This document shows, in pieces, positions 7,413 to 31,200 of a stretch of 34,411 nt of DNA (positions are counted from its first letter, which is position 1; every line of letters starts with the position of its first letter). The stretch is from the NCBI RefSeq assembly GCF_011421595.1, contig NZ_WTLH01000021.1, forward strand, positions 3,460-37,870, given 5' to 3'. The notes under the pieces are model-generated. The model searched no databases. It was not told the origin of the DNA and saw only the letters and a program-made list of their open reading frames with translations. Both the position numbers and the translations under genes were made by a program. The stretch is from Streptomyces sp. YIM 98790. GTDB taxonomy: Bacteria; Actinomycetota; Actinomycetes; Streptomycetales; Streptomycetaceae.

Positions 7413-7474
7413 GCACCGGCGACAGCGTCGCGGACAGCACCGACATGGCACAGCAGAAGAGGAGACACGGTCTG

Positions 7475-18469: not shown

Positions 18470-19111
18470 TCACCGGCCTTCCGCAATGACCGGCTGGAGC
18501 ATGGCGAGGATCTCTTCCTCGTCAAGCGCCTTGAGTGCCCGGGCCGCGATCCGGCCCCGGCGGTCGATCACCACGGTGGACGGGATCGCCTGCGGCAGCA
18601 GGTGGCCGTCGAAGCGCAGCACCAGCCGTCCCTCGGGGTCGTAGAAGCTGGGGTAGGTGATGCCGTAGCGCCGCTCGAACTCCCGGGCCGGGCCCGGGGA
18701 CAGGTCGCGGGTGTTGATGCCCAGGAACTGCACTCCCTTGTCGCGGGTCCGGTCGAAGGCACGCTGGAGGTGCGGCGCCTCGGCCTTGCACGGCTCGCAC
18801 CACGACCCCCACACGTTGAGCAGCACCACGCTCCCGCGGTGGTCGGACAGCGCCAGCGGCTCGCCGTCCAGGCTCTCGCCGGAGATGTCCGGGGCCGGAA
18901 CGCGTTGCTCAGCGGGGATCGCGGTGATCTCCCCGGTGCCCGCCGGGAAGCTGTCCCCGTCACTGCGGGAGCGGTCCGTGCCGGATCCCGTCGTCCCTGA
19001 GGTGCACCCGGTGAACAGCAGCGCCGCACCGGCCGCGAGGACGTGCCGGCGGGAGGGCAGGCCCGTGTCCGGCGGCCACCGGACGTTACTCCGAAGCTTC
19101 TTAGGCGACAT
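18470..19111 (-). CDS. TlpA/ResA-like thiol-disulfide lipoprotein (Tat-type signal)
   Basis: A 213-residue extracytoplasmic thioredoxin-fold protein. The signal is SRRHVLAAGAALLFTGC, twin-Arg followed by a lipobox, so a membrane-tethered lipoprotein. The redox site is WGSWCEPCK in VVLLNVWGSWCEPC; then FLGINTRDLS, YGITYPSFYDPEGR and the cis-Pro region IPSTVVIDRRGR. It probably reduces apo-cytochrome c or copper-site thiols with electrons from the CcdA encoded upstream at 19189. It is a paralogue of the protein at 22757. The only plausible start is the ATG at 19111, which has no Shine-Dalgarno (CCCCCC precedes), suggesting a leaderless mRNA. A putative operator overlaps codons 3-7. Confidence 0.88.
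   Translation of the reverse strand: MSPKKLRSNVRWPPDTGLPSRRHVLAAGAALLFTGCTSGTTGSGTDRSRSDGDSFPAGTGEITAIPAEQRVPAPDISGESLDGEPLALSDHRGSVVLLNVWGSWCEPCKAEAPHLQRAFDRTRDKGVQFLGINTRDLSPGPAREFERRYGITYPSFYDPEGRLVLRFDGHLLPQAIPSTVVIDRRGRIAARALKALDEEEILAMLQPVIAEGR
19091..19105 (-). promoter_or_regulatory. BlaI-type candidate operator at the TlpA start
   Basis: CCGAAGCTTCTTAGG matches the local 15-bp dyad CCTAwGnnnCwTAGG with one mismatch (T to G at position 3). It overlaps codons 3 to 7 of the TlpA gene on the minus strand. If the transcript is leaderless, a repressor here would sit on the transcription start. Confidence 0.55.
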
Positions 19112-19188
19112 GGGGGGAGTGTGGCACGTCCGTCCGGCCCGGCCCGTCACGGCCCCTGCGGCGTCTGCCGCCCGTCTTCCCGATGGGA

Positions 19189-20052
19189 TCACAGGGGGAG
19201 TTCGTATCCGCTGATCCAGGTCTGCATGTGGTAGATCATCAGGCTCCACAGGCCGGTGACCTGTGCGATGCCGACGGCCAGGAGCAGCACGCCCCCCATG
19301 CGCAGAAGCGTGCGGGTGTGGCGGCGGGCGGCCTCGAAGGCGCGCAGCGACTTGCCGAGCGCGAGGGTGAACAGCAGGAAGGGCGCGCCGACCCCGACCG
19401 CGTAGAGGAAGGCGAGGAGGGCGCCGCGTCCGGCGGATCCGGTGGTCAGGGACAGGGAGAGCACGGCGGCCAGGGTCGGGCCGATGCACGGCGTCCAGCC
19501 GATGCCGAACATCACGCCCAGCAGCGGTGCCCCGGCGAGTCCGGCGCGCGGGGTGAAGCGCGGCTTGATGGTGCGCGAGAGCACCGGAACGCGTTCCAGG
19601 ACCCCCGCGAACATCAGGCCCAGCACGATGGTGACGGCGCCGAGGATGCGCAGGACGGTGTCCTGGTGGGCGAGCAGCAGGGTGCTGACGGAACCGAACA
19701 GCGCGCCGTAGGCGGTGAACACGGCGGCGAACCCCAGGACGAACAGAGCCGTGCCCAGCAGTGCCCGGGATCTGGCCCGGCCGCCGGGAGACCGCTGGGC
19801 CTCGTGGGCGTCGGCGGCGGTCATGCCGGTGGTGTACGACAGGTAGCCCGGCACCAGGGGCAGGCAGCAGGGAGAGGCGACGGTGATCGCTCCCGCGGCC
19901 ACCGCGATGGGGGCGGCCAGCAGCAGGGAGCCGGAGCCGACCACCTGGCCGATGTCGACGGACACGAAGGAACCTTTCGGCGATTGCGGTCCCGCAGCGC
20001 CGGGCCGGCCGGATGCCGCAGCCGGGACGCCGTCGGGGGAGTGGATCGACAC
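19189..20052 (-). CDS. CcdA/DsbD-type transmembrane thiol-disulfide transporter
   Basis: 287 residues from the GTG at 20052 (AGGAG nine nt upstream) or 258 from the GTG at 19965 (AAAGG upstream). The longer form adds a Ser/Pro/Gly-rich cytosolic leader. Six TM helices are expected; the redox Cys lie in [18 protein letters not shown] and [17 protein letters not shown], both classic CcdA positions. It passes electrons from cytoplasmic thioredoxin across the membrane to TlpA-like partners, here the gene 77 bp downstream. The operator half at 20064-20078 overlaps the Shine-Dalgarno of the longer form. A second ccdA-like gene is divergent. Confidence 0.9.
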
Positions 20053-20063
20053 GCACTCTATCT

Positions 20064-20094
20064 CCTATGTATCTTAGGTCCTAAGCTGCATAGG
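20064..20094. promoter_or_regulatory. Double BlaI-type candidate operator between divergent ccdA-like genes
   Basis: Two 15-bp sites, CCTATGTATCTTAGG (20064-20078) and CCTAAGCTGCATAGG (20080-20094), flank a single T. Together they form a 31-bp symmetric dyad centred on 20079: CCTATG/CTTAGG/CCTAAG/CATAGG. Each site faces one of the divergent promoters. Confidence 0.8.
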
Positions 20095-20140
20095 TCTTCG
20101 CGGGCGGAACGGCCCGTGACCCGCCGGAAAGGGCTGGTGG

Positions 20141-21172
20141 ATGAGCGAACTGCTCTTCGGGACGACGCTGCTGGCGTCGTTCCTCGGCGGAATGGTCGCC
20201 TTGCTGGCACCGTGCTGCATCTCGGTGATGCTGCCCGCCTACTTCGCCACCGGCTTCCGCTCCCGCGGGCGCGTGGTGGCGGCGACCCTGGCGTTCGGCG
20301 GCGGGGTCGCCACCGTCATCGTCCCGGTCGGACTGGGTGCCGCGGCGCTGTCCGCCGCACTCCAGCAGTACCACGTGTGGGTGTATCTGACCGGCGGGGT
20401 GCTGATGCTGGCCGGCGGCCTGGCGGTGCTGGCCGGGTGGAAGCCGAAGCTGCCGATGCCGTCCGGGGGCGCTCCGCGCCGGGGCGGCGGATTCGGCGCC
20501 GCCTACGGGCTGGGGGCGTTCTCCGGGATCGCCAGTGCCTGCTGCGCCCCGGTGCTGGCCGGGGTCGCCGTGCTGTCAGGGGCCAGCGGCTCCTTCCCGG
20601 CCGCGCTGAGCGTGGGCCTGATCTACGTGCTGGGCATGGTCGCCCCGCTGGTGGTGATCGCCCTGGCCTGGGAACGCGGTCACCGTGGACCGGCGCGGGT
20701 GCTGCAGAACCGCCGGGTCCGGCTGCGGGCCGGAGCATGGCGGCGCAGCCTGCCACTGGGCGACCTGCTGGCCGGAGTTCTGCTGGTGGCCATGGGCATC
20801 CTGACCATGGTGCTGGCCCTGAAGGGACCGGACATGGCCCGCTCTGGCTGGCGGGTGCGGCTCGCGGCCGATCTCGACCACCTCGCCTCGCGGATCACCG
20901 ACGCACTCGCCTGGGCGCCCGGCTGGGCAGTGGCCCTGACCGCCGCCGCCACCCTGGCCCTGCTGATCCGCCGCGCCCTGCGGAGCTCTCCGGCCCCCGC
21001 CGGCCCCGCTGAACCCGCCGACCACGGCAGCGAAGGCTCCGCCACCGCGGACGCCGCCGCGTGCTGTGCCGAGCCCGGGACGGCAGCCCGCTCCTTTCAC
21101 CCGACAGCGGCGACGGCCGCCGCCACACCCGCCCGCACCACCAAGGAGGAGACCGCCACCGATGGCCACTGA
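20141..21172 (+). CDS. CcdA/DsbD-like membrane protein with cysteine-rich variant sites
   Basis: 343 residues. The N-terminal core has six TM helices with LLAPCCISVMLPAYFA and GIASACCAPVLAGVAV: both redox positions are Cys-Cys, unlike the single Cys of classical CcdA. Two more TM segments follow (DLLAGVLLVAMGILTMVLAL and AVALTAAATLALLIRRAL), then a low-complexity tail with another CC (DAAACCAEPG). The doubled Cys could indicate metal binding or transfer as well as thiol exchange; that is inference. It begins the plus-strand operon that continues to the TlpA at 22757 and lies 46 bp after the operator. Confidence 0.82.
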   Translation: MSELLFGTTLLASFLGGMVALLAPCCISVMLPAYFATGFRSRGRVVAATLAFGGGVATVIVPVGLGAAALSAALQQYHVWVYLTGGVLMLAGGLAVLAGWKPKLPMPSGGAPRRGGGFGAAYGLGAFSGIASACCAPVLAGVAVLSGASGSFPAALSVGLIYVLGMVAPLVVIALAWERGHRGPARVLQNRRVRLRAGAWRRSLPLGDLLAGVLLVAMGILTMVLALKGPDMARSGWRVRLAADLDHLASRITDALAWAPGWAVALTAAATLALLIRRALRSSPAPAGPAEPADHGSEGSATADAAACCAEPGTAARSFHPTAATAAATPARTTKEETATDGH

Positions 21173-21869
21173 CACCGCCACCGGCGCCGGCCGCAGGCCC
21201 GGAACCAAGGCAGCCCGGCTGGCCAGGGCCAGGGCACTGCGCGCGCAGGAGCGTCAGCATGAGCGGCGCAACCAGCGGCTGCGCAGCACCGCCCTGGTCA
21301 CCGCTCTGGTGATCGTTGTCACCGCCGCCCTGTACGTGATCTTCCGCCAGGGCGAGGAGAACGCCCGGAACATCAGCTACGACGTCGGGGAGCCCGGCAT
21401 CGGCGAGACCGCCCCGGACTTCACCCTCGCCTCCAGCGCGGGCGGTGAGGAGACCCTCTCCGGTCATCGCGGCGAGACCGTGCTGCTGTACTTCCACGAA
21501 GGGGGAGGCTGCCAGCCGTGCTGGGACCAGATCACCGACCTGGAAGCGGAATGGCACAAGGCCGAGGTCCTCGGGATCGACACCATGCTCTCCCTCACCA
21601 CCGACCCGGCCGATCTGACCCGGCGCAAGGCCGGTGACGAGGGCATCACCTCCCCGGTGCTCTCCGACCCCGGCCTGAAGGTCTCCAAGGAGTACACGAC
21701 CAACGAGTACGGGATGATGGGCGGTTCGACGAACGGCCACAGCTTCATCCTGGTCGGCCCCGACGGGAAGATCCAGTGGCGCGCCGACTACGGCGGGGCC
21801 CCCGACTACACCATGTACGTCCCTGTCGACAAGCTGCTGGCCGATCTGACGGAAGGACGCACGGCATGA
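21162..21869 (+). CDS. Membrane-anchored AhpC/TSA (peroxiredoxin-like) protein
   Basis: 235 residues from the ATG at 21162 (AAGGAGGA upstream), overlapping the preceding gene by 11 bp. A basic, Arg-rich cytosolic N-terminus (ARLARARALRAQERQHE) precedes one TM helix (ALVTALVIVVTAALYVIF). The outside part is a thioredoxin-fold AhpC/TSA domain: IGETAPDFTLASSAGG, VLLYFHEGGGCQPCWDQ and GHSFILVGPDGKIQWRADYGG. The CQPC pair is a redox or metal-binding candidate. It probably acts with the CcdA-like protein upstream. A similar set is common in actinobacteria, but its exact function is not established to my knowledge. Confidence 0.8.
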   Translation: MATDTATGAGRRPGTKAARLARARALRAQERQHERRNQRLRSTALVTALVIVVTAALYVIFRQGEENARNISYDVGEPGIGETAPDFTLASSAGGEETLSGHRGETVLLYFHEGGGCQPCWDQITDLEAEWHKAEVLGIDTMLSLTTDPADLTRRKAGDEGITSPVLSDPGLKVSKEYTTNEYGMMGGSTNGHSFILVGPDGKIQWRADYGGAPDYTMYVPVDKLLADLTEGRTA

Positions 21870-22177
21870 CCGGGCCGCGCCCTGCCCACCGCGTCACCCT
21901 GCTCACCCAGGCCGACTGCAGCCTGTGCGAGCACGCCAAGCAGGTCCTGGCCACCGTGGGCAAGGACCACCCGCTGGAGGTCACCGAGACCGACCTGACC
22001 AGCGACGAAGGGCAGCGGCTCGGTGCCGCCGCCGGAGTCCTGTTCGCCCCGGGCGTCCTGCTCGACGGGAAGCCCTTCTCGTACGGCCGGCTCTCCGAAC
22101 GGCGTCTGCGCCGCGCCCTCCGCGCCGCCACGGACTCCCCTTCCACCGCTTCCGCAACCCCGAGCCAAGCCTCGTAA
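21866..22177 (+). CDS. Glutaredoxin-like protein
   Basis: 103 residues from the ATG at 21866, overlapping the previous stop (ATGA). Thioredoxin/glutaredoxin fold: VTLLTQADCSLCEHAKQVL carries the CxxC motif at the N-terminus of helix 1, and APGVLLDGKPFSYGRLSE the equivalent of the cis-Pro and C-terminal strand. There is no signal peptide, so it is cytoplasmic. It may relay electrons or a metal to the CcdA-like protein of the same operon. Confidence 0.82.
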   Translation: MTGPRPAHRVTLLTQADCSLCEHAKQVLATVGKDHPLEVTETDLTSDEGQRLGAAAGVLFAPGVLLDGKPFSYGRLSERRLRRALRAATDSPSTASATPSQAS

Positions 22178-22188
22178 AGGAGACTCCC

Positions 22189-22443
22189 GTGGACGCCTTC
22201 TACGCACTGGCCGTACTCGCCTGCCCCCTCGGCATGGGCCTGATGATGTGGTTCATGATGAAGGGCAACCGCCCGCAGGGCGGTACCCCGGCTCCCCACG
22301 CCGGGGCCGCCGGCCACGCGGGCTTCACCACCGACCCCCGGCGGAAGGAGGTCGAGGCCCTGCGCGCCGAGGTCGACTCCCTGCGCGCCCGGCTCGACGA
22401 CCGGCCCGCCGCGGGGCGCCAGGAGCAGGAGCGGGCACGGTGA
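22189..22443 (+). CDS. Small membrane protein with coiled-coil tail (hypothetical)
   Basis: 84 residues from the GTG at 22189 (AAAGGAG upstream). One TM helix (YALAVLACPLGMGLMMWFMM) is rich in Met with one Cys. A Gly/Ala/Pro linker with His follows, then a short heptad-like helix (RKEVEALRAEVDSLRARLDD). The Met-rich, Cys-containing helix would suit copper passage, but no family is recognised. It is 11 bp after the glutaredoxin-like gene and overlaps the next gene by GTGA. Confidence 0.65.
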   Translation: MDAFYALAVLACPLGMGLMMWFMMKGNRPQGGTPAPHAGAAGHAGFTTDPRRKEVEALRAEVDSLRARLDDRPAAGRQEQERAR

Positions 22444-22754
22444 TCGACACCGTTCTGCCGCCCCTGTCCGCCGCGGCCGCGATCGCCCTGACCTACGTCT
22501 TCTGCGTCCGGCCCATGCGCCGGGGCCGCGGCTGCCCCACGGCGCCGCGGCAATCCGGGGAGAACCGGAGCCAGGACTGCTGCCGCGCCACCCATGACGG
22601 CCGGAAACCCGCACCACCGCCGGCGGCGGCGGGCGCAGACGGCACGGAGGCGGAGACCGCGCGGCTCCGCGAGGAGGTCCGGCTGATCCGCCGCCACCCG
22701 GACCTCCGCTCCCGGGAGGACGCGGTACAGCTCCGGAAAGACGAGTCACGCTGA
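22440..22754 (+). CDS. Small single-TM protein, Cys-containing (hypothetical)
   Basis: 104 residues from the GTG at 22440, sharing GTGA with the stop of the previous gene. One N-terminal TM helix (VLPPLSAAAAIALTYVFCVRPM) precedes a hydrophilic cytosolic part with GCPTAP and DCCRATHDGRKP, then a charged helix (EAETARLREEVRLIRRHP). It is probably a partner of the 84-residue neighbour: both pair a TM segment with a short coiled coil. No family recognised. The next gene starts 3 bp after its stop. Confidence 0.6.
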   Translation: MIDTVLPPLSAAAAIALTYVFCVRPMRRGRGCPTAPRQSGENRSQDCCRATHDGRKPAPPPAAAGADGTEAETARLREEVRLIRRHPDLRSREDAVQLRKDESR

Positions 22755-22756
22755 GT

Positions 22757-23383
22757 ATGTCCCACATATCCCTGCGGCGGACCGCTGCCCGCTCCCGCCC
22801 GGCGGAGCCGTCCCGGCGCACAGTGTTCACGGGGCTGTTCGCCCTTACCGCCGCCACCCTCACCGCCTGCGGCAGCGTCCAGGAGGACAGCGGCGGGTCG
22901 GCGGGGCTGGGAGCGGCGCAGGGCAGTTCCTCGCAGTACTTCGCCCCGGCGGAACGCACCGTGGTCCCCACGGTGCAGGGAACCACCCTGGAGGGTGCGG
23001 AAGCCGACATCGCGTCGCTGCGCGGAGACGTCGTCGTGATCAACATCTGGGGATCGTGGTGTGCGCCGTGCCGCAAGGAAGCCCCCGAGCTCAAGGAGCT
23101 CGCCGAGCAGACCGAACCCCTGGGGGTGACGTTCCTCGGCATCAACGTCCGCGACAACCGGACCGCGGCGAAGGGTTTCGAACGCACCTATGGCATCACC
23201 TACCCCAGCATCTACGACCCCTCCGGCCGCACCATGGCCGGCTTCCAGAGCCTGGCCCCGCGGGCCGTGCCCACCACCTACGTCCTGGACCGGGAGGGCC
23301 GGGTGGCCGCTGTGTCCATCGGCCCTCTCACCTACCGGGACTTCCTCCCCATCATCGAGGACATCGCCGCCGAGACCGCCTGA
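22757..23383 (+). CDS. TlpA/ResA-like thiol-disulfide lipoprotein (second copy)
   Basis: 208 residues from the ATG at 22757. The signal is SRRTVFTGLFALTAATLTAC, again twin-Arg plus lipobox. The redox site is NIWGSWCAPCRKEAPEL; FLGINVRDNRTAAKGFERTY and GITYPSIYDPSGR closely follow the paralogue at 18470, and VPTTYVLDREGR holds the cis-Pro. It closes the plus-strand operon (CcdA-like, AhpC/TSA, glutaredoxin-like, two small membrane proteins), so it is the probable outer recipient of electrons from the CcdA-like protein at 20141. Confidence 0.9.
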   Translation: MSHISLRRTAARSRPAEPSRRTVFTGLFALTAATLTACGSVQEDSGGSAGLGAAQGSSSQYFAPAERTVVPTVQGTTLEGAEADIASLRGDVVVINIWGSWCAPCRKEAPELKELAEQTEPLGVTFLGINVRDNRTAAKGFERTYGITYPSIYDPSGRTMAGFQSLAPRAVPTTYVLDREGRVAAVSIGPLTYRDFLPIIEDIAAETA

Positions 23384-23417
23384 CCGCCCACCCCCTGCGC
23401 AAGGGCCGGGTGCGGCG

Positions 23418-24284
23418 TCACTCCGTGGTGGCGATGCGTTCGGTGAAGGACTCACCGGCGTCGGTGGATTCGTAGACGCCGCCTCCGGTGGCGGCGAGCA
23501 GGCGCCCGTCGGCCAGGGCGGTCAGCGCCTGCGGGCCGCCGCCGGGCACCTGTCCGGCGCGGGTCCAGGTGGCCCCGCCGTCCTCGCTGCGCAGCACGGT
23601 GCTGTCCGGGTCCAGGCCGTACAGGGTGCCGTCGGGGGCCCAGGAGAGGAAGGCGGCGACGGTGTCGCCGCCGTCGTCGAAGGTCGCACCGCCGTCGGTG
23701 GAGGTGGCGATGCCCCGCTGAGTGGTGGCCAGGACCAGGGCGGGGTCGTCGGGGCTGACGGCGAGGTCGACGGCGGCGATCTCGGCGCCGGTGTCCCAGG
23801 TGCGGCCGTCCGGGCTGGTCATGATCCGGCCGTGGGTGTGGCCGTAGAGGGTGTCGTGGGCGTATTCCAGGGCGTGGAAGTCGGCTTCTCCGGCCAGGGA
23901 GAGGGCGGTCCAGGTGCGGCCGCCGTCGGTGGATTCCAGCAGGCCGCGGTCGGCGGGCTCGTCGCTGCCGGGTTCGGGGTGGCCGCTGCCGTAGAAGTGG
24001 TCCGGCCCGGCGACGGTGAAGCCCATGTAGTCGGCTCTGTCCTCGCTGACGAGTTCGGCGGAGCCGTCGTCCCGCACGGTGATCACACCGTGGTGGGTGG
24101 CGACGTAGAGCAGACCGTCCGCGGGGTTGATGCCCAGTCCGTGGATGTGGGCCAGGTCCACGTCCTGTGGTGCGGCGGTCTCCTCGCCGTCTCCGGAATC
24201 GTCGGAACCGCAGGCGGTCAGGGCGAGGACCAGCGCCGCTGTGGCGGCGGTCAGGACGCGCCGGATACGGGTGTGCAGAAACAT
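23418..24284 (-). CDS. Beta-propeller lipoprotein (F510_1955/sialidase-like glycosylhydrolase family)
   Basis: 288 residues. The signal peptide ends in the lipobox LALTAC. The rest is a repeat protein with Asp-box motifs typical of BNR/sialidase-type propellers: STDGGRTWTAL, SPDGRTWDTG, STDGGATFDDG, SEDGGATWTRAG and STDAGESF. It opens LAHIHGLGINPADGLLYVATHHGV, the signature of the family annotated as F510_1955 glycosylhydrolase. Hydrolase activity is not evident from the sequence. It lies downstream of the DUF305 and DUF3105 genes in what looks like one minus-strand operon, though a 228-bp gap separates it. His pairs near the N-terminus (HIHG, THHG) are candidate metal ligands. Confidence 0.82.
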   Translation of the reverse strand: MFLHTRIRRVLTAATAALVLALTACGSDDSGDGEETAAPQDVDLAHIHGLGINPADGLLYVATHHGVITVRDDGSAELVSEDRADYMGFTVAGPDHFYGSGHPEPGSDEPADRGLLESTDGGRTWTALSLAGEADFHALEYAHDTLYGHTHGRIMTSPDGRTWDTGAEIAAVDLAVSPDDPALVLATTQRGIATSTDGGATFDDGGDTVAAFLSWAPDGTLYGLDPDSTVLRSEDGGATWTRAGQVPGGGPQALTALADGRLLAATGGGVYESTDAGESFTERIATTE

Positions 24285-24512
24285 GAGACTCCTCTTGGGG
24301 CGATGGGTGCGGAGCGGTGGGCGCCGCCCGTCCTCGGGGCATCAGCCCTCGTACGGCCGAGTGCCGGGAGCGGTGTCGGGCCGTCGGCGGCGGTCGGCAG
24401 CCGCGCGCCCGGGCGTCACGCAGCGTCCGCACCAGACGGCCGGTGCCGGCGGGGAGGTGAGGGCCTGCCGGGCAGACCCCCACCGTAGTGTCGTCTCACC
24501 CGGTCGCCGTGT

Positions 24513-25157
24513 TCATCCGGACGGGGCGGCGCCGCGGTCGGTGAGCATCGCGGCCATCAGCGTGATCTCCGATTCCTGGCCGCGTACCATGCCCTCGGCC
24601 AGACCGGTGATCTGCTCCTCCTGTGCCTGATCGGCCGCGGCCTGTGCCATGTGCACTCCGGCGCGGTGGTGCTCGGTGAGGAGTTGCAGGTAGCGGATCT
24701 CGGCGTCGGTGCCCTCGGCCCGGCGCAGGGCGTCGATCTTCTCCTCGGTGGCCATCCCGGGCATCAGCGCACCGCCGTCCCGGCCGGACATGCCGCCGTC
24801 CATGGTGTGGTCCATCCAGGCCATGGGCGGGTCGGCGGAGACCACCGGCAGGTCCCAGGACTCCAGCAGCGCCAGCAGCATGCCGCGCTGGTTGGCCTGG
24901 GTGTTGATGATGTCGTAGGCCAGGCGGCGGACTTCCGGGTCGTCGGTGCGGTCGCGGACGATGAAGGACAGCTCCACGGCCTGCTGGTGGTGGACCGCCA
25001 TGTCCCGGGCGAAACCGGCGTCCGCCGAGTCCTGCCCGGGTGGCCGGTCGCCGCTGCCCGGAAGCCGGGCCGCCGCGAGCAGTACGGCGGCCAGCACGAC
25101 CAGCGCCACCGCGCCACCGGCGGCGATCAGCCGCCCGCGCGGGCCGGGCCGGGTCAT
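24513..25157 (-). CDS. DUF305 protein, Met/His-rich, candidate copper-binding
   Basis: 214 residues; an N-terminal signal-anchor (LIAAGGAVALVVLAAVLLAA) puts the rest outside the membrane. The four-helix DUF305 core is clear: FARDMAVHHQQAVELSFIV, IINTQANQRGML and YLQLLTEHHRAGVHMAQAA, each with paired His/Met. The mid-loop MAWMDHTMDGGMSG then LMPGMATEEK is a methionine-rich segment. Synechocystis CopM, a DUF305 protein, binds copper, which supports a copper role here by family. The ATG overlaps the stop of the DUF3105 gene (ATGA). Confidence 0.88.
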   Translation of the reverse strand: MTRPGPRGRLIAAGGAVALVVLAAVLLAAARLPGSGDRPPGQDSADAGFARDMAVHHQQAVELSFIVRDRTDDPEVRRLAYDIINTQANQRGMLLALLESWDLPVVSADPPMAWMDHTMDGGMSGRDGGALMPGMATEEKIDALRRAEGTDAEIRYLQLLTEHHRAGVHMAQAAADQAQEEQITGLAEGMVRGQESEITLMAAMLTDRGAAPSG

Positions 25158-25801
25158 GGCATGCTCCCGGACGCGCAGGTGGCGCCGGGCTCGGGGGTCT
25201 GCTCGCCCTGCACGTACTTGAGGAGGAACTGCTCCACGCGCGGGTCGTCGGCGTCGTCGACGGCGAGCTGGTGCCCCCAGGCGGTCAGCACCACCGGGTC
25301 CTCCTGGTCGGCGTACGGGCTCAGAAAGGTGTAGGGGGTGGCCGCGACCCGGTCGGTCAGGGCCTTGATGTCGCCGTCCGCGGCCTGGTCGTTGTAGGTG
25401 ATCCATACCGCGCCGTGCTCCAGGGAGTGCACGGCCTGCTCCTCGCTGACCTCTTCCTCGTAGACCTTGGCGTCGCACGCGAGCCAGGCCGGGTGGTGAT
25501 CGCCGCCGGCGGCTGGGCTCATGGCGTAGTCCACCGGCTCGGTGGTGTGCGTCTGCGAGAGGTCCGCCCAGGTCTCCACCCCCTCGACGGTGGCCTTGCG
25601 GGCGGCTGCGGCGGCCTGTTCGTCCTGCTCGGTGGAGTACCACAGGTACCAGCCGCCGCCCAGGGTGGCGGCGGATATGACGGCGACGGCGCCCCAGGTG
25701 ATGATCTTGCTGCGGCGTTCACGGGCCTGGTCGGCGCGGCGCATCGCCTCGATACGGGCGCGGCGCTCGGCCGCCTGCGCCTTTCGGTTGGCGGAACTCA
25801 T
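25154..25801 (-). CDS. DUF3105 membrane-anchored protein
   Basis: 215 residues from the ATG at 25801 (MSSANRKAQAAERRARIEAM). A basic cytosolic N-terminus precedes one TM helix (IITWGAVAVISAATLGGGWYLWY) and an external DUF3105 domain. That domain includes GGDHHPAWLACDAKVYEEEV, VHSLEHGAVWITY and VVLTAWGHQLAVDD, all with conserved His; two Cys (WLACD and ATCAS) could pair. DUF3105 genes recur beside DUF305 genes in actinobacteria; biochemical function is not known to me. His clusters suggest metal binding. Confidence 0.87.
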   Translation of the reverse strand: MSSANRKAQAAERRARIEAMRRADQARERRSKIITWGAVAVISAATLGGGWYLWYSTEQDEQAAAAARKATVEGVETWADLSQTHTTEPVDYAMSPAAGGDHHPAWLACDAKVYEEEVSEEQAVHSLEHGAVWITYNDQAADGDIKALTDRVAATPYTFLSPYADQEDPVVLTAWGHQLAVDDADDPRVEQFLLKYVQGEQTPEPGATCASGSMP

Positions 25802-25887
25802 GGTCGGTATGCGTCCTTGTGCTGCGGTGTGGGTGGGCGGACAGCGGCGGACCCGGGGCGCGCGGGGCACGCCCGGGCCGGGGCGCG

Positions 25888-26328
25888 CTACACCCGCAGC
25901 AGCTGCAGCACGTGCAGGCCGGGCGGCCGGGGCTCGGCCGGGCTGCGGCAGCCCGGCTCCGATGCCGGCGGGCCCGGCGCCGGAGCCGGCGGGACGGCGG
26001 CGGGAGGCAGCCCGTCCGCGGTGGCCGGGAACGTGGCCTGCCGCGCCTCCGGTGCGACAGCCGGTTCCGCGCAGCGTTCACCGCCGCCGTCCCCGGCGCA
26101 CTCCGCACAGGGCTCACCGCCCGTCGCCGGCTCCGCGGCCGGGAAGGCCGCCGGCGCCGGGTGGTGATCCGTGCCGGCGGAGGGCTGCCGGGCGTCGGCC
26201 GCCGCACACGCGAAGAGCACGGAGACGACGGCCAGGAGGACCGCGGTGAGCAGACGAGCAACGGCCCGCCCTCGACGGCCGGATGACCGGACGGCAGGAC
26301 GCGGCTCCCTCCGCAGCAGCGGGATCAT
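25888..26328 (-). CDS. Cys-containing exported or membrane hypothetical protein
   Basis: 146 residues from the ATG at 26328 (MIPLLRREPRPAVR); an ATG at 26469 would add 47 Arg/Pro-rich residues and is less likely. One hydrophobic segment (ARLLTAVLLAVVSVLFACAAADA) is followed by a Pro/Ala-rich region with the Cys motif GEPCAECAGDGGGERCAEP and a conserved-looking end, GLHVLQLLRV. Short Streptomyces proteins ending in a similar LQxLRV peptide occur, but I cannot name the family. It is the first gene after the operator at 26549 and 86 bp before the DUF3105 gene. Real coding is probable but not certain. Confidence 0.5.
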   Translation of the reverse strand: MIPLLRREPRPAVRSSGRRGRAVARLLTAVLLAVVSVLFACAAADARQPSAGTDHHPAPAAFPAAEPATGGEPCAECAGDGGGERCAEPAVAPEARQATFPATADGLPPAAVPPAPAPGPPASEPGCRSPAEPRPPGLHVLQLLRV

Positions 26329-26671
26329 TCTCACCGCACGGATCCCGGCCAGGCCGGGGCCGGCCCGGCGAACCTGCCCCGACCGCAGGCGGGGCCGGAG
26401 GCGACCCCGGCCATACCGGCCCGTTCGCCGGCCGGGAAGCGTCCACGGAAAGGAGCGGGCGCCTGCCATGGCGCGTACCGGTTCCCGCGGCCGGACGAGG
26501 GCGCGGTCCCGTTCCCGGTGGCTGTGGGCACAGCCGCCACCTCCAAAACCTAAGACGCATAGGTGACAGCGAATGTACCAGGCGCCCGCCGCCGGCGCCC
26601 AGGGGCGTACCGGGCCCCTGGCCGGCGGCGCGGAGAGGTGGCGGCGCGGTGTCCGACGTGCGCCCGGGGTG
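26329..26671. other. Promoter region of the DUF3105-DUF305 operon
   Basis: A 343-bp gap between the SHOCT gene and the Cys-containing gene. It holds the operator at 26549-26563. No convincing gene was found; frames on either strand are Arg/Pro/Gly-rich. Confidence 0.5.
26549..26563 (-). promoter_or_regulatory. BlaI-type candidate operator of the DUF3105-DUF305 operon
   Basis: CCTAAGACGCATAGG fits the 15-bp consensus CCTAwGnnnCwTAGG exactly. Read on the minus strand the site continues TTAGGTTTT, so TAGGTT could be the -10 of the promoter facing the Cys-containing, DUF3105 and DUF305 genes. Confidence 0.75.
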
Positions 26672-26941
26672 CTACGGCTCCGGCCGGTGGCGCGCCAGGT
26701 GCCCGCGTGCCTGCGTGTATTCCTCTGCGTCGATCTCCCCGCGGGCGAACCGGCGGTCGAGGATCTCCTCCGCGCTCTCCCGGCCAGGCATGCCGTGGTC
26801 GCGGCTTCCGGCTTCCCCGCCGGTCCGGGAGGTGTTCTGCGACAGGCGGATCACGGCCCAGACCACCAGGCCGATCAGAGCGATCCACACCAGGGGCGCG
26901 ATGGCCATCATCCACATCCAGCCACCGCCGTCCCAGTACAT
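26672..26941 (-). CDS. SHOCT-domain small membrane protein
   Basis: 89 residues from the ATG at 26941, with GGAGG 11 nt upstream; GTG 26953 or ATG 26950 would add four or three residues. The N-terminus is MYWDGGGWMWMMAIAP, then one TM helix (VWIALIGLVVWAVIRL). The C-terminal SHOCT motif is SAEEILDRRFARGEIDAEEYTQAR. It is the third gene of the Sco1-DUF2752 unit (88 bp after DUF2752). The family is linked to oligomerisation or membrane regulation; the exact role is unknown. Met/Trp-rich starts of this kind are common beside copper genes. Confidence 0.85.
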   Translation of the reverse strand: MYWDGGGWMWMMAIAPLVWIALIGLVVWAVIRLSQNTSRTGGEAGSRDHGMPGRESAEEILDRRFARGEIDAEEYTQARGHLARHRPEP

Positions 26942-27029
26942 CACCACCATCACCTCCGCCCTGAATGCACCTTTTTCTACCTTAAGCGGGATTCTGCGGC
27001 TCGGCGCCGGGCAGGTACGCCGGGGGCGG

Positions 27030-27593
27030 TCAGCGGTGCCGGTGCCGCCGCAGCAGGAGCACCACCACGAGTGCCGCCACCAGCGGAACGGCCGCCGCGT
27101 ACAGCAGCAGCCCGGCTGCCATCCCGCCGTCCGGCTCCGGGCCCAGCAGGTCCGCCCGGGTCTGCTGCCGGACGGTCAGGGCGGCGGTCAGCACCGCTGC
27201 GGCGGCGATCGCGGCACGGCGGTGGGTGATCCGCACATTGGGCCAGCGGCCGGTCAGCCGTCCGGCCGCCTCCCGGACCAGTGCCGCGACCGCGCCCGGC
27301 ACCAGAAGCACAGCGAGCGGGTTGAAGCGCAGCGCGTCGCCGAGATCCCCCAGCGCCGCCGCGTGCACCGCGCGGGTGCCGCCGCACAGCGGCCCCATCA
27401 CTCCGGCGTAGTGCAGCGGGCCGTGCAGATCCACCGGGGGCAGGCCGAAGAGCGCCATGGCCGCCCCCGCCGCCAGCCCGACGGCCGCCAGCGGGCCCGC
27501 CCATCGGTGACCGTCCCGCTCTTCCCAGGCCAGACGGAACGGCATCGCGTACTGCCACGCCGTACTTCTCACCCACGCTCCCGGCTTCTTCAC
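27030..27593 (-). CDS. DUF2752 membrane protein
   Basis: A 187-residue protein with about four TM helices. The family motif is MGPLCGGTRAVHAAALGDLGDALRFNPLAVLLVP; most members have CPxCGxTRA, and here the first Cys is absent (only LCGGTRA). The ATG overlaps the Sco1 stop (ATGA), so the two are co-translated. The C-terminus is basic (LLLRRHRHR). The function of DUF2752 is unknown; linkage to Sco1 suggests a role with copper or cytochrome oxidase maturation. Confidence 0.82.
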   Translation of the reverse strand: MKKPGAWVRSTAWQYAMPFRLAWEERDGHRWAGPLAAVGLAAGAAMALFGLPPVDLHGPLHYAGVMGPLCGGTRAVHAAALGDLGDALRFNPLAVLLVPGAVAALVREAAGRLTGRWPNVRITHRRAAIAAAAVLTAALTVRQQTRADLLGPEPDGGMAAGLLLYAAAVPLVAALVVVLLLRRHRHR

Positions 27594-28255
27594 GGGGTCC
27601 GGCCCCTCAGCAGCTTGGGCAGATCCCTCGCGTAGTCCTCGGCTGTGGCCTCCTCACCGCTGTAGATCACATGCGCCTTGTCATCTTCGGCGAAGAAGGC
27701 CAGAACGGTCTTGCCGTGGGTGGCGGTCACCGTGCCGTCCTCGTCGACCGTGGGCGGCGCCATGCCCACCCCCACGGAGCGGGCCGCGGCCTCCACGGTC
27801 CGGTAGTCGCCGCTGAGCCCGATGAAGTCCGGGCTCCCGGCACCGCGCAGCCATCTGCCCAGCTCTTCCGGGGTGTCGCGCTCGGGATCGGTGGTGACGA
27901 AGACGAACCGCAGCTGCTCGCGCTGCGCCGGTGACAGATCCTGATAGGCCAGTGCGAGGTTGCTCACGGTCAGCGGACAGGCGTCGGGGCAGTGGGTGTA
28001 GCCGAAATAGAGCAGAGTGAGCTTTCCCTCGGTGTCCTCGCGCAGGTCGAACGGCTCACCGCGGGTGTCGGTCAGGACCAGGTCCGGCTTGCGGAAAGGC
28101 TGGTCCAGCACGGTCGCGGCCCGGGTCGGGCCCGTGGAGACCTCGCTGAAGACGGCGCCCGGCGGTTCCTCGGAACCGCCACCGCCGCCGCAGGCCGACA
28201 GGGCCAGCGCGGCGATCACGGCCAGGACAACGGCCGGCACGGAGGGCTTGCGCAT
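27590..28255 (-). CDS. SCO1/SenC-type copper chaperone lipoprotein
   Basis: 221 residues from the ATG at 28255 (GGAG about 11 nt upstream). The lipobox LALSAC is followed by a Gly/Ser linker. The thioredoxin fold carries the copper motif GYTHCPDACPLT (CxxxC) and the distal His in TATHGKTVLAFF, the three ligands for Cu(I)/Cu(II) in Sco proteins. VFVTTDPERDTPEELGRWL and FIGLSGDYRTVEAAARSVG are typical. It delivers copper to CuA of cytochrome c oxidase or acts as a thiol reductase. The operator at 28308 sits 53 bp upstream. It heads the Sco1-DUF2752-SHOCT operon. Confidence 0.95.
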   Translation of the reverse strand: MRKPSVPAVVLAVIAALALSACGGGGGSEEPPGAVFSEVSTGPTRAATVLDQPFRKPDLVLTDTRGEPFDLREDTEGKLTLLYFGYTHCPDACPLTVSNLALAYQDLSPAQREQLRFVFVTTDPERDTPEELGRWLRGAGSPDFIGLSGDYRTVEAAARSVGVGMAPPTVDEDGTVTATHGKTVLAFFAEDDKAHVIYSGEEATAEDYARDLPKLLRGRTP

Positions 28256-28307
28256 GATGAACGGCTCCAGGAATCGGCGAGCGGATGCCGCACACCCGCA
28301 CCATAAA

Positions 28308-28322
28308 CCTAAGCTCCTTAGG
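28308..28322 (-). promoter_or_regulatory. BlaI-type candidate operator of the Sco1 operon
   Basis: CCTAAGCTCCTTAGG is the most symmetric member of the set (perfect 6-bp arms, 3-bp spacer). On the minus strand it continues into TTAGGTTTA, so TAGGTT may be the -10. It lies 53 bp upstream of the Sco1 ATG. Confidence 0.8.
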
Positions 28323-28471
28323 TATTGGTGGGAGTCTACGGCAGACCGATCCCGGCCAGACGTCACCCCCGGCTGCGACGCGAACGCCGCGGAAGGCTGC
28401 GGTGCGGGCAGGACCGCGACAGCGGGGACCAACTCACCAGTCCCCTGAACCGCCGGTCCCCGGCGGAAAAC

Positions 28472-29452
28472 TCACACCACGGGCTCCGCGGCGGCGACCG
28501 GATCGTCCGGCAGCGGGCAGGTGCTCATCCCCGTCGCCGCGACCGCGGGCTGGGCGGCCAGAACGAACGGCACAGCCAGCAGGACCCCCGCCGTCAGCGC
28601 CCCGCCCCAGGCCACCGCACGGCGCACCGGCCGGCGCGGGCCCAGCAGCCGGTGCACCCGGCCGGCCACGTGACCGCCGGACGCCGCGAGGGACGCGGCG
28701 GGTGCCCCGGCGCCGGCCAGCCCCACCAGAGCACCGGCCAGGGTGAGGGAGCCGGTGCGGGCCGTTGCCGCATCGTCGGCGGCCAGCTCCACCAGCCGCC
28801 GCGTCTCCTGCGCCGCCAGGCGGAACAGCGGCAGGCCCGGGAAGGCCCGCTCCATGGCCTCCACATAGGCCAGGACCAGGTGGTGCCGCTGCCGGATGTG
28901 GGCCCGCTCATGCGCGATCACCGCCCCCAGCTCCCGCGGGTCCAGCGCGGCCAGGGCCGCCGTGGTCAGCACGATGCGGTGGCCGTGACCGGGAAGACAG
29001 TAAGCGGCCGGGCGGTCGTCGTCCAGCACGGTGACACCCAGGTCGGGCCGGGCGCGACCGACCATGGCCAGCACGGCGGCGTGCCGCACGCGCTCCCGGC
29101 GTGCCCGCCACACGGCCGCCCCCAGACACCACCCGGTACGGCCCGCCACGGCAACGGCCAGTGCCGTCCCGGAAGCCGCTGCCGCCGCACCGCCGGGGAC
29201 CGCGTACTGAGCGCGCAGCGCCATGACACAGGCGTGCAGCATCTCGGCGAGACTGCCGCTGACCGGCACCGTCGGCACGGCCAGGGCCAGCCCGGCCAGT
29301 GCGACGGAGGCGATGACGGTGGCCGTGACCGCCTGCCAGGCCCAGATGCCCAGCTTGGGCGCCCGCGCCGTCCAGCCCGGCCGCGCCAGCAGCATCGGCG
29401 CCAGCACCGCCAGCACCGTGGCATAGCCCAGCAACAGGACAGCGATCCTCAC
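28472..29452 (-). CDS. M56-family (BlaR1/MecR1-like) membrane metallopeptidase
   Basis: A 326-residue protein. About four TM segments flank a cytosolic gluzincin domain with HExxH (AVIAHERAHIRQRHHLVLAYVEAM) and downstream RRLVELAADDAATA, which provides the third zinc ligand region. It lacks the C-terminal penicillin sensor domain of BlaR1 and ends shortly after the last helix with TCPLPDDPVAAAEPVV. The ATG overlaps the repressor stop (ATGA). By analogy it cleaves or triggers cleavage of the BlaI-type repressor on receiving a signal; here the signal could be copper or a redox state rather than a beta-lactam. Confidence 0.92.
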   Translation of the reverse strand: MRIAVLLLGYATVLAVLAPMLLARPGWTARAPKLGIWAWQAVTATVIASVALAGLALAVPTVPVSGSLAEMLHACVMALRAQYAVPGGAAAAASGTALAVAVAGRTGWCLGAAVWRARRERVRHAAVLAMVGRARPDLGVTVLDDDRPAAYCLPGHGHRIVLTTAALAALDPRELGAVIAHERAHIRQRHHLVLAYVEAMERAFPGLPLFRLAAQETRRLVELAADDAATARTGSLTLAGALVGLAGAGAPAASLAASGGHVAGRVHRLLGPRRPVRRAVAWGGALTAGVLLAVPFVLAAQPAVAATGMSTCPLPDDPVAAAEPVV

Positions 29453-29823
29453 GACTCACCCTCCGCGCGCCGCGCCATGAGCGCCGCCCGCAGCTCGGCG
29501 ACCTCCGCGTCGTCCAACTTCTCGAACAGCCGCACCAGGGTCGCGGCGCGGTCCGCGCCGCTCTCCCAGACCTGGTCGATGAGGGAGGCGGCGTACTCCT
29601 CACGGCTCTTGGTCACCTGATACCGAAAGGCTCTGCCGTCCTTCGACCGCGTCAGCCAGCCCTTGCGGTGCAGGACCTCCATCACCGTCTGCACCGTGTT
29701 GTACGCCAGCGGCTGCGGCCGCCCGCCGTTGAGACAGGCCAGAACCTCGCGCACCGTCGGCGGCTCCTTGGCAGACCACACCACATCCATGATCGCCTGC
29801 TCCAGCTCGCCGAAGCCCCGCAT
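29449..29823 (-). CDS. BlaI/MecI/CopY-family transcriptional repressor
   Basis: A 124-residue winged-helix protein. MRGFGELEQAIMDVVWSAKEPPTVREVL is the canonical start; the recognition region is YNTVQTVMEVLHRKGWLTRSKDGRAFRYQVTKSREEY, and the C-terminal helices form the dimer and cleavage region. Its operon with an M56 peptidase is the BlaI-BlaR arrangement. GGGAGGA precedes the ATG, and a 15-bp dyad lies 25 bp upstream, consistent with autoregulation. It lacks the CxCx4CxC copper site of Enterococcus CopY, so any metal response would come through the peptidase. It is the best candidate to bind the six dyads in this island. Confidence 0.93.
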   Translation of the reverse strand: MRGFGELEQAIMDVVWSAKEPPTVREVLACLNGGRPQPLAYNTVQTVMEVLHRKGWLTRSKDGRAFRYQVTKSREEYAASLIDQVWESGADRAATLVRLFEKLDDAEVAELRAALMARRAEGES

Positions 29824-29847
29824 CCGGCCGTCCTCCCTTCACGAAAA

Positions 29848-29862
29848 CCTAAACGCCATAGT
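29848..29862 (-). promoter_or_regulatory. BlaI-type candidate operator (autoregulatory)
   Basis: CCTAAACGCCATAGT matches the 15-bp consensus at all but two arm positions. Minus-strand reading gives TTTAGGTTTTCG ahead of the repressor start, again with TAGGTT as possible -10. Confidence 0.7.
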
Positions 29863-30204: not shown

Positions 30205-30618
30205 TCAGACCTTGATCACGGTGACGCGTCCGCCGGCCAGCGCGGTCAGGTCGTCGGGGTCGGAGGAGAGGACCGTGACAGGGCCGGTGGCGGCGAGGGC
30301 GGTGGCGGTGAGCATGGCGTCGATGGCGTGTTTGTGGCCGTGCAGTCCGGCGTCGGCGAGCAGGGCCGCTGCGTGCCGGGCGACGGTCTCGGTGATGGGT
30401 TCGATGACGAGGCGGGAGAGGGTCCACTCCAGAGCCGGCCGCTTGATGCGCGGGTGCATGACTTCGACAAGCGTTGCCGCGGAGGTGATCACGCGCAGGT
30501 CGTCGGCACGGGCCAGGGCGAGCCAGGTGGTGATGGTGCGGTCGCGCAGGACCGCCTTGGCCAGTCCTTCGCTGTCGAGGACGAGGGTGCCGCCGGGGGT
30601 GGCGGTGGGGCGGGTCAT
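30205..30618 (-). CDS. PIN-domain toxin (VapC-like ribonuclease)
   Basis: A 137-residue protein. The PIN acidic residues are in place: LVLDSEGLAK near the N-terminus, TLVEVMHPR, HAIDAMLTATAL and VLSSDPDDLTAL. Such proteins cleave RNA using Mg2+. The ATG at 30618 overlaps the stop of the antitoxin gene (ATGA), the usual VapBC order. Located between two tRNA-Arg copies, so probably cargo of an integrated element. Confidence 0.88.
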   Translation of the reverse strand: MTRPTATPGGTLVLDSEGLAKAVLRDRTITTWLALARADDLRVITSAATLVEVMHPRIKRPALEWTLSRLVIEPITETVARHAAALLADAGLHGHKHAIDAMLTATALAATGPVTVLSSDPDDLTALAGGRVTVIKV

Positions 30619-30878
30619 GCGGCGTGGGCCTCGCCGGTGTGCTGCTCGGTGCGGGCGCGGTGGAGCTGGTCGCGCAGGGCCTGGATCTCTTCTTCGGTGA
30701 TGGGGCCGTGTTCGGCTTCGGCGACGGTGATGAGCTCGTTGAGGTTGTCGCGTTCGATCTGCCGGGCGACGGCGGCGGCTACGTAGGCGGACAGGCCGGA
30801 GGGGCCGCTGCGGGCGCGGGCGGCCTCGGCGATGTCCCGGGGCATGGTGATCGAGTACTTCTGGGTGGGCTCGCTCAT
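30615..30878 (-). CDS. CopG/ribbon-helix-helix-like antitoxin of the PIN toxin
   Basis: 87 residues from the ATG at 30878 (MSEPTQKYSITMPRDIAEAA). The start has the form of a ribbon-helix-helix DNA-binding strand (KYSITMP), followed by helices SGLSAYVAAAVARQIERDNLNELI. The C-terminal tail (EEEIQALRDQLHRART) would wrap the toxin. AGGAG sits unusually close to the ATG (one base). It likely autoregulates the pair. Confidence 0.83.
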   Translation of the reverse strand: MSEPTQKYSITMPRDIAEAARARSGPSGLSAYVAAAVARQIERDNLNELITVAEAEHGPITEEEIQALRDQLHRARTEQHTGEAHAA

Positions 30879-31052
30879 GCTCCTTATGCTACCGCCAATG
30901 CTCCGGTGCAGACCGGTTTGCCCAGGTCCAGAGGGCTGCTGGTGGTATGAAGGGTGGTGAGCTGGGCGTTCACCCGGGGAGATGGCGGTGGACGTCATGC
31001 GGAGGGTGACAGTTTCCGGTGACAGGTCCGGCCGGGCCTGGACCGACTCGAC

Positions 31053-31200
31053 GTCGTGGTGGACGGTGTGACCTACCGCTGGCGCCTGCGCCGCAAGCCA
31101 GCCCATGGCCAAGGGCTCGGCTCCTCTCCCTGCGTCTTCGCGCTCGAGCACGCCGAGCACCCCGCACCACCCTCGTCGTCAGCACCAACCAGTTCACAGC
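31053..31200 (+). pseudogene. Frameshifted fragment of the SRRIVVDG-type orphan gene
   Basis: 31054-31156 is identical to 17832-17934 at 101 of 103 positions (VVDGVTYRWRLRRKP and onward). The start of the gene is missing. Just after, CCCCGGCACC of the first copy has become CCCCGCACC: a one-base loss shifts the frame before the conserved LVVTT segment. Similarity fades after about 31190. A dead copy, probably carried by the integrated element. Confidence 0.85.

What the first reader, a model, noticed from the sequence alone, without database searches (positions are those of the whole stretch)
19091..29862. A 15-bp dyad, CCTAwGnnnCwTAGG, at six places defines a local BlaI/M56 regulon for copper and thiol proteins
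Sites at 19091, 20064, 20080, 26549, 28308 and 29848 share 6-bp arms and a 3-bp spacer. Each sits at a gene or operon start: TlpA, CcdA, the divergent CcdA-like operon, the DUF3105-DUF305 operon, Sco1, and the BlaI-M56 operon itself. Such AT-containing dyads stand out in this GC-rich DNA. Known BlaI/CopY operators use TACA/TGTA cores, so this would be a different operator class. The set suggests a protease-relieved repressor that senses an extracytoplasmic copper or redox signal. The BlaI-site pairing is inferred.
Basis: partly seen in the sequence, partly recalled or inferred. Interest (0 to 1): 0.85.

Follow-up and report, generated by a model that had tools for sequence, protein, structure and literature searches.

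The report
BlaI-type operator for copper-redox genes
A short mirror-image DNA signal sits in front of a set of copper- and sulfur-handling genes and very probably is the docking site of their own repressor, a relative of the switch that controls penicillin resistance; the same arrangement recurs in other soil bacteria.

Summary
The dyads are real and far from chance. In the 6.48-Mb genome the bare core CCTA-N7-TAGG occurs four times, all here; all five matches to the 15-mer with at most one mismatch are here. Site 29848 (two mismatches) is backed by its kept place before blaI in relatives; 19091 (one mismatch) is backed only weakly. In 101 genus genomes, dyads beside orthologues of these genes occur in 4 of 5 carriers of this BlaI/M56 pair (3 of 4 without the window's own genome) and in 0 of 96 others. 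Eighty actinobacterial BlaI loci hold 83 cores, in 46 loci, against a mean of 2.5 for other spacings; 60 of 83 lie near homologues of the window genes. In plasmids two cores directly precede copC.

The regulon is supported. BlaI binding, M56 proteolysis and a copper or thiol signal are inferred. A wholly different operator class is only partly right: a printed Clostridium BlaI motif (GTCTAT-N5-ATAGAC) has the same CTA-N7-TAG geometry. Verdict: new variant of a known kind, an actinobacterial BlaI/M56 regulon with a C/G-flanked operator tied to copper and extracytoplasmic thiol chemistry.

The parts
19091..19105 (.). dyad, 1 mismatch (CCGAAGCTTCTTAGG), at the start of the TlpA gene; weakly supported
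   Evidence: PWM 14.7; a CCGAA-type site (CCGAAACCCCTTAGG, 11.4) precedes a TlpA relative in G089; but only 1 of 6 TlpA_18473 relatives has a site over 10
20064..20078 (.). exact dyad, first of a pair in the ccdA / ccdA-like divergent promoter
   Evidence: PWM 23.0; site at -76/-77 of ccdA-like in 5 of 6 relatives, the sixth at -47 (two of the six are identical in sequence, two share a plasmid)
20080..20094 (.). exact dyad, second of the pair (1 bp after the first)
   Evidence: PWM 23.9; same 16-bp step, the outer dyad sometimes imperfect, in G089, G090, S. coelicoflavus and the NBC_00637 plasmid
26549..26563 (.). exact dyad before the DUF3105-DUF305 operon
   Evidence: PWM 19.8; like-placed dyads in G089, G090 and S. 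cellulosae
28308..28322 (.). exact dyad before sco1
   Evidence: PWM 24.6; Sco sites in 6 of 8 relatives
29848..29862 (.). imperfect dyad (2 mismatches) in the blaI promoter, over a TACTAT box (by eye)
   Evidence: PWM 12.6; best site at -38/-39 of blaI in 12 of 16 close orthologues, but only 5 of those 12 score 10 or more
29449..29823 (-). BlaI-family repressor (PF03965)
28472..29452 (-). M56/M48-type membrane metalloprotease, HERAH motif, no penicillin-sensor domain matched
27590..28255 (-). SCO1/SenC lipoprotein
27030..27593 (-). DUF2752 membrane protein, overlaps sco1
26672..26953 (-). SHOCT-domain small protein
25154..25801 (-). DUF3105 protein
   Evidence: scanned as the longer frame 25154-25870
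24513..25157 (-). DUF305 protein (CopM-family match of 65.5 bits, below the cut-off of 90)
23418..24284 (-). F510_1955-family (BNR) lipoprotein
22757..23383 (+). TlpA-like thioredoxin, exported by look of its start
21866..22177 (+). glutaredoxin-like protein (PF05768)
21162..21869 (+). redoxin (AhpC/TSA)
   Evidence: longer frame 21066-21869
20141..21172 (+). CcdA-like membrane protein with CC motifs, no Pfam match
   Evidence: the gene in the same place on plasmids is annotated as CcdA
19189..20052 (-). CcdA (DsbD_TM)
18470..19111 (-). TlpA-like thioredoxin lipoprotein

Best explanation
The dyads are operators of the BlaI protein encoded at 29449-29823. A BlaI dimer binds CCTAWG-N3-CWTAGG over or just behind the -10 box and represses its own operon and a set of envelope genes for copper handling and thiol-disulfide exchange (sco1, ccdA, ccdA-like-redoxin-glutaredoxin, DUF3105-DUF305, perhaps tlpA; in relatives also copC/copD). 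The paired dyads between ccdA and ccdA-like probably hold two dimers side by side. The partner M56 membrane protease probably feels an extracytoplasmic copper or thiol-redox stress and cleaves BlaI, which frees the promoters. Shown: operator conservation, specificity, co-occurrence, gene content. Inferred: BlaI binding (likely), repression (likely), cleavage by M56 (by family), copper or thiol as the signal (from gene content).
For: Own genome: 5 of 5 places with 0-1 mismatch and 4 of 4 bare cores are in this cluster (the pattern was drawn from these sites, so the point is their absence elsewhere). Genus sample: exact dyads in 5 of 5 genomes with a clade M56 and 1 of 96 without; only dyads beside regulon genes, 4 of 5 and 0 of 96. 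Without the window's own genome: 4 of 4 and 1 of 96 (1.3e-6), or 3 of 4 and 0 of 96 (2.5e-5). Eighty BlaI loci: 83 cores in 46 loci, against a mean of 2.5 for six other spacings. 60 of the 83 have a homologue of a window gene starting close by, 36 of them blaI, 24 another gene without blaI or M56. Upstream of blaI CTA-N7-TAG is seen 69 times, other spacings 1-14, except N10 with 40. Sites head operons and are absent before most inner genes: ccdA-like 6 of 6, Sco 6 of 8, ccdA 8 of 12; M56 0 of 17, DUF2752 0 of 11, redoxin 0 of 5, DUF305 1 of 15, glutaredoxin 1 of 7. On the plasmid of Streptomyces sp. NBC_00637 9 of 9 cores are outside listed genes, two directly before copC. BlaI with Q/H/L in the recognition helix: 37 of 70 have a site near blaI; other residues 0 of 58. 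Published BlaI motif with the same geometry.
Against: No binding or expression data. G007 has the BlaI/M56 pair without the gene set and no site over 8 in 20 kb around it; its one exact dyad lies 7 Mb away with no relative of these genes within some 10 kb. The second pair in G090 (L161) has only a weak blaI site (3.7). Among 16 close blaI orthologues 4 lack the -38/-39 site and 7 of the 12 that have it score under 10. TlpA relatives: 1 of 6 with a site. 33 of 70 Q/H/L BlaI genes have no site over threshold, and on the tree only 3 well-supported independent pairs exist, so the helix link is not significant after kinship; also the 80 loci were fetched with two peptide patterns, one of which is a helix pattern that demands Q or H, and most of the M/T/K/N rows come from another search. 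Loci with and without dyads differ in gene content clearly only for DUF3105 (25 of 62 against 1 of 18, p=0.0045, uncorrected, 10 families). In a class-wide sample 5 other genomes hold 6 exact dyads, none within 1.5 kb of relatives of these genes: the background is about 3% of genomes. 34 of the 80 BlaI loci hold no core.
Confidence: 0.82

Rival explanations
1. The dyads are bound by another regulator (for instance a CsoR, MerR or ArsR-type metal regulator encoded elsewhere), and BlaI/M56 is merely one more target gene.
For: No binding data; metal regulators of other families lie near relatives of the cluster on plasmids.
Against: The dyad tracks the presence of this BlaI/M56 clade and marks the blaI promoter in distant genera; a BlaI motif in print uses the same spacing; among the cluster proteins scanned no other regulator family was matched.
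Confidence: 0.1
2. BlaI binds the dyads but the signal is a cell-wall or beta-lactam signal, as in BlaR1/MecR1.
For: Same protein families; M. [quoted passage not shown]
Against: The M56 here is 326 aa and matched no penicillin-binding sensor domain; no beta-lactamase or PBP family was matched among the cluster proteins scanned; the targets are copper and thiol proteins.
Confidence: 0.08
3. The dyads are RNA hairpins or other promoter-linked repeats and no repressor site.
For: They are palindromes with 6-bp arms.
Against: They also lie between divergent genes; by eye they overlap or adjoin -10-like boxes; the core is fixed while the centre varies (on dyads chosen for that core). The two terminator-like sites found do not coincide with them.
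Confidence: 0.03

Closest known systems
BlaI/BlaR1 and MecI/MecR1 of staphylococci and bacilli
   Same: Winged-helix BlaI-family repressor co-encoded with an M56 membrane protease; autoregulation (recalled, and a passage)
   Different: Operator of TACA/TGTA type (passages of PMC7253601); beta-lactam sensor domain on BlaR1, not matched here; beta-lactamase or PBP targets
CopY/CopR copper repressors (TcrY, TIGR02698)
   Same: Same repressor superfamily, copper-related targets
   Different: CopY binds metal itself through Cys-X-Cys and uses RNYKACANNYGTMRNY (passages of PMC7253601); this BlaI scores 34.7 bits against a cut-off of 122 and has an M56 partner
BlaI_0696 and BlaI_1845 of Clostridium thermocellum (DAP-seq)
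   Same: BlaI_0696: inverted repeats of GTCTAT 5 nt apart, that is TCTA-N7-TAGA, same half-site spacing; sites for four protomers; co-encoded BlaR1 (passages of PMC8457756)
   Different: TCTA (or, for BlaI_1845, ACTA) arms instead of CCTA; regulons of sensor and cell-wall genes
M. tuberculosis BlaI (Rv1846c; PDB 2g9w by recall, listed only as a hypothetical protein)
   Same: 2g9w is the best solved sequence match, E 1.2e-15
   Different: Recognition segment AYTTVMAV in 2g9w instead of AYNTVQTV; blaC, atpH and sigC named with it in print (passage); its operator letters were not seen in any call
CYT modules of Arthrobacter plasmids
   Same: COG3682 regulator with two CcdA proteins (passage of PMC6305408)
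   Different: Described as cytochrome or sulfur module; no operator or regulon in the passages seen

Membership tests
BlaI-family repressor (PF03965) | Penicillinase_R domain over the curated cut-off | tested here: met
   84.2 bits against 22.6
BlaI-family repressor (PF03965) | binds the dyad operator as a dimer | not testable with these tools
   only comparative evidence
BlaR1/MecR1 system | co-encoded membrane protease of family M56 with HEXXH | tested here: met
   HERAH present, both His in 41 of 41 rows, the window counted twice; PF05569 (M56) 24.4 bits is below its cut-off of 31, PF01435 (M48) is above its own; relatives are annotated M56; Foldseek hits to M48/Ste24 and BlaR1 are weak, none under E 0.001
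BlaR1/MecR1 system | C-terminal penicillin-binding sensor domain | tested here: not met
   326 aa, only protease families matched
BlaR1/MecR1 system | cleavage of BlaI by the protease | not testable with these tools
   -
CopY/TcrY copper repressor | TIGR02698 over cut-off | tested here: not met
   34.7 bits against 121.95
CopY/TcrY copper repressor | C-terminal Cys-X-Cys metal motifs | tested here: not met
   the only Cys of the 124-aa protein is residue 30 (sequence)
CopY/TcrY copper repressor | TACANNTGTA-type operator | tested here: not met
   the shared sites are CCTA-N7-TAGG

The most novel reading that the evidence does not exclude
A widespread actinobacterial stress switch in which a membrane protease without a penicillin domain reads copper or disulfide stress outside the membrane, perhaps through two conserved cysteines (loop Cys75 and tail Cys312), and destroys a BlaI repressor to switch on a copper-thiol regulon, in some genomes scattered, with its own operator code: transmembrane copper/redox sensing by regulated proteolysis rather than by a cytoplasmic metal sensor or a two-component system.
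Probability: 0.35. Interest if true: 0.75.

Novelty: new variant of a known kind. Interest (0 to 1): 0.6.

Why it matters
It gives a testable operator and target list for a BlaI/M56 branch without a beta-lactam sensor, found from Streptomyces to Arthrobacter, Cryobacterium and Nonomuraea and on plasmids beside metal-resistance genes. It places little-known families (DUF3105, DUF305, F510_1955, the CcdA-like protein) in one copper-thiol regulon, and it asks what such short M56 proteases sense.

Tried and rejected
Considered and rejected: the 27605 match (inside the sco1 frame, PWM 6.6). Dyads around the other two BlaI genes of this genome: none within 2 mismatches in the 3.3 kb held around each (L016, L018). 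A clade-specific cysteine sensor in M56: loop Cys75 (40 of 41 rows) and tail Cys312 (38 of 41; 3 gaps) are conserved in the clade (the window counted twice), but comparable loop and tail cysteines also occur in many other M56 proteins, and the tail of the predicted model is under pLDDT 50, so no disulfide could be judged. Phylogenetic independence of the recognition-helix link: too few independent pairs.

Literature: five searches on BlaI with copper, M56, CcdA, CopC or DUF names (one search found none) and three on BlaI operators or the M. tuberculosis BlaI. Among the rows listed (10-20 each, of up to 2,041) I saw no title or abstract start on this operator or regulon. Passages only were seen of PMC12565901, PMC8265638, PMC7253601, PMC8457756 and PMC6305408. 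The library is open-licence PMC, so this is weak evidence of absence.

Errors and limits of mine: the first TlpA query (18568 frame) was out of frame; the DUF3105 query was frame-shifted, so I leave DUF3105 out of the promoter counts. The PWM was trained on CCTA-N7-TAGG dyads of the relatives (window left out), so its scores there are circular; the spacing control and the pattern searches are not. Plasmid gene tables are incomplete by the tool's own note, so 'outside listed genes' is not quite 'intergenic'. I viewed 3 of the 4 plasmid records found.
Full report
Observation. Four match the 15-mer exactly, one has one mismatch and one has two. A seventh, at 27605, is inside the sco1 frame and weak. 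At two mismatches the pattern has 61 places in the 6.48-Mb genome, so that level alone says little. At zero or one mismatch there are five places and all are in this window. The bare eight-base core CCTA-N7-TAGG has four places, again all here, while the pattern read backwards has 70. That answers the refutation test 'equally common elsewhere'.

Gene anatomy. By Pfam or NCBIfam the cluster reads: TlpA (18470-19111), CcdA (19189-20052), a CcdA-like protein without a Pfam match, a redoxin, a glutaredoxin-like protein, a second TlpA, an F510_1955-family lipoprotein, DUF305, DUF3105, SHOCT, DUF2752, SCO1/SenC, an M56/M48 protease and BlaI. A frame at 25888-26469 matched nothing. The protease is 326 aa with HERAH and no penicillin-binding domain; its AlphaFold model (mean pLDDT 79) has weak Foldseek similarity to M48/Ste24 proteases and BlaR1, none under E 0.001.

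Test within the genus. An exact 15-mer search of 101 genomes, the window's own included, found six with a match. The same 101 were searched with the window M56: five hold a clade member (56% identity or more, 321 bits or more), the rest at most 173 bits. All five have an exact dyad, against one of 96 others (7.6e-8). The stricter count, dyads beside regulon orthologues, is 4 of 5 against 0 of 96 (1.2e-6). Leaving out the window's own genome, from which the pattern came: 4 of 4 and 1 of 96 (1.3e-6), or 3 of 4 and 0 of 96 (2.5e-5). The exception is G007: the pair stands there without the gene set, and its single exact dyad is 7 Mb away. In G033 the exact dyad is about 0.75 kb before blaI, at a methyltransferase gene, with near-matches at blaI and ccdA-like. 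In G089 the exact dyads lie at three distant chromosomal places, beside ccdA-glutaredoxin, behind BlaI-M56, and between the DUF3105-DUF305 operon and the F510_1955 gene, with weaker ones before two sco1 genes and tlpA. A class-wide sample of 197 genomes gave five further genomes with six exact dyads, none within 1.5 kb of relatives of these genes; this is the background.

Named relatives. Eighty BlaI loci (the best 80 of 225, fetched by two conserved peptide patterns, one of them in the recognition helix) hold 83 CCTA-N7-TAGG cores in 1.40 Mb; spacings 4, 5, 6, 8, 9 and 10 give 2.5 on average. The cores lie in 46 of the 80 loci; 60 of 83 have a homologue of a window gene starting nearby (-60 to 450 bp), 36 of them blaI and 24 another gene without blaI or M56; 23 have none. 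Of the 23, eight stand just behind M56 in the closest relatives, and some precede other plausible targets, such as a CopC-CopD protein (CopC E 1e-17) and, divergently, a protein with a weak cupredoxin match. Upstream of blaI the shorter core CTA-N7-TAG is seen 69 times; spacing 10 is also raised (40), partly through extended CTACTAT/ATAGTAG repeats and a Blastococcus variant. The 34 loci without a core include those of Blastococcus, Amycolatopsis and Jiangella, so the operator letters vary over the family.

Plasmids. The window M56 has relatives on four plasmids, all of Streptomyces; I viewed three. S. mirabilis P16B-1 and S. liliifuscus carry blaI-M56-ccdA-peroxiredoxin-...-copC-...-DUF3105-DUF305 close to a heavy-metal P-type ATPase gene, and Streptomyces sp. 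NBC_00637 two sets. All 3 cores on the S. liliifuscus plasmid and 3 of 4 on the S. mirabilis plasmid are in the cluster; two of these six overlap the end of the preceding methyltransferase gene by 5 bases, and the fourth S. mirabilis core was not viewed. All 9 cores on the NBC_00637 plasmid are outside listed genes: two directly before copC, three between divergent ccdA genes, one behind M56, one at tlpA, two before unnamed genes.

Footprint. Sites keep their place while flanks diverge: -76/-77 of ccdA-like in 5 of 6 and -47 in one; -68 to -76 of sco1 in 5 of the 6 that have one (8 examined); best site at -38/-39 of blaI in 12 of 16 close orthologues, with a strong right arm (CTTAGG in most) and a weaker left arm that coincides with a TACTAT or TACGAT box, so that only 5 of the 12 score 10 or more. 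Most genes inside operons lack sites (M56 0 of 17, DUF2752 0 of 11, redoxin 0 of 5, DUF305 1 of 15, glutaredoxin 1 of 7), and so do most TlpA (1 of 6) and F510_1955 genes (2 of 7). By eye, Sco promoters share TAGACT and DUF3105-operon promoters a TAnnTT box some 13 bases before the dyad; the consensus scan found one promoter-like site, whose -10 hexamer lies in the 20064 dyad. So the sites sit on or just behind likely -10 boxes, where a repressor would act. The ccdA pair, two dyads 1 bp apart, recurs in G089, G090, S. coelicoflavus and the NBC_00637 plasmid, some with an imperfect outer dyad, which recalls the four-protomer sites described for C. thermocellum BlaI (PMC8457756, passages).

Who binds. 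The dyad follows this BlaI clade, marks blaI itself in distant genera, and has the half-site spacing of a DAP-seq BlaI motif. BlaI proteins with Q, H or L at the variable residue of A(Y/F)xTVxTV have a site near blaI in 37 of 70 cases, those with M, T, K or N in 0 of 58. Kinship explains much of this, since only three supported independent pairs exist, and the two groups were largely fetched by different searches. That BlaI is the ligand is therefore likely, not shown.

Signal. CopC/CopD, SCO1 and DUF305 genes point to copper; CcdA, TlpA, redoxin and glutaredoxin point to thiol exchange outside the membrane. Which of the two is sensed is open. Two cysteines of M56 that should lie outside the membrane are conserved in the clade (40 and 38 of 41), but similar ones occur in other M56 proteins, so they are candidates only.

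Known or new. Family membership as a BlaI repressor is met; CopY and the BlaR1 sensor are not met. The CTA-N7-TAG geometry is in print for C. thermocellum; the CCTA/TAGG variant and this regulon were not seen among the rows listed by eight searches of an open-licence library. I rate it a new variant of a known kind.

Noticed in passing
window 5862-10664: Genes that read like a metal ABC transporter (substrate-binding protein, ATPase, permease), a separate metal locus by look of the translations; no family search was made.
   Followed up: no
window 30205-31160: A PIN-like gene with a small overlapping partner on the minus strand, upstream of blaI, looks like a toxin-antitoxin pair by eye; no family search was made.
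   Followed up: no
L163 (G007) and L161 (G090): Lone BlaI-M56 pairs 74-79% identical to the window's but without the copper-thiol genes and without strong dyads; their purpose is unclear.
   Followed up: partly
L126, L128, L133 upstream of blaI: CTACTAT-N5-ATAGTAG repeats, an ACTA-N7-TAGT version of the same spacing, in Jiangella and Glycomyces.
   Followed up: partly
L129, L130, L132, L134, L136, L137 (Blastococcus) upstream of blaI: Two conserved repeats of the kind (T/C)CTAAG-N6-CGTAGA instead of the CCTA core.
   Followed up: no
window 22100-22443: Small membrane protein with CPLGMGLMMWFMMKG behind the glutaredoxin gene; relatives with a like motif stand behind dyads in Arthrobacter (L099, L115).
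   Followed up: no
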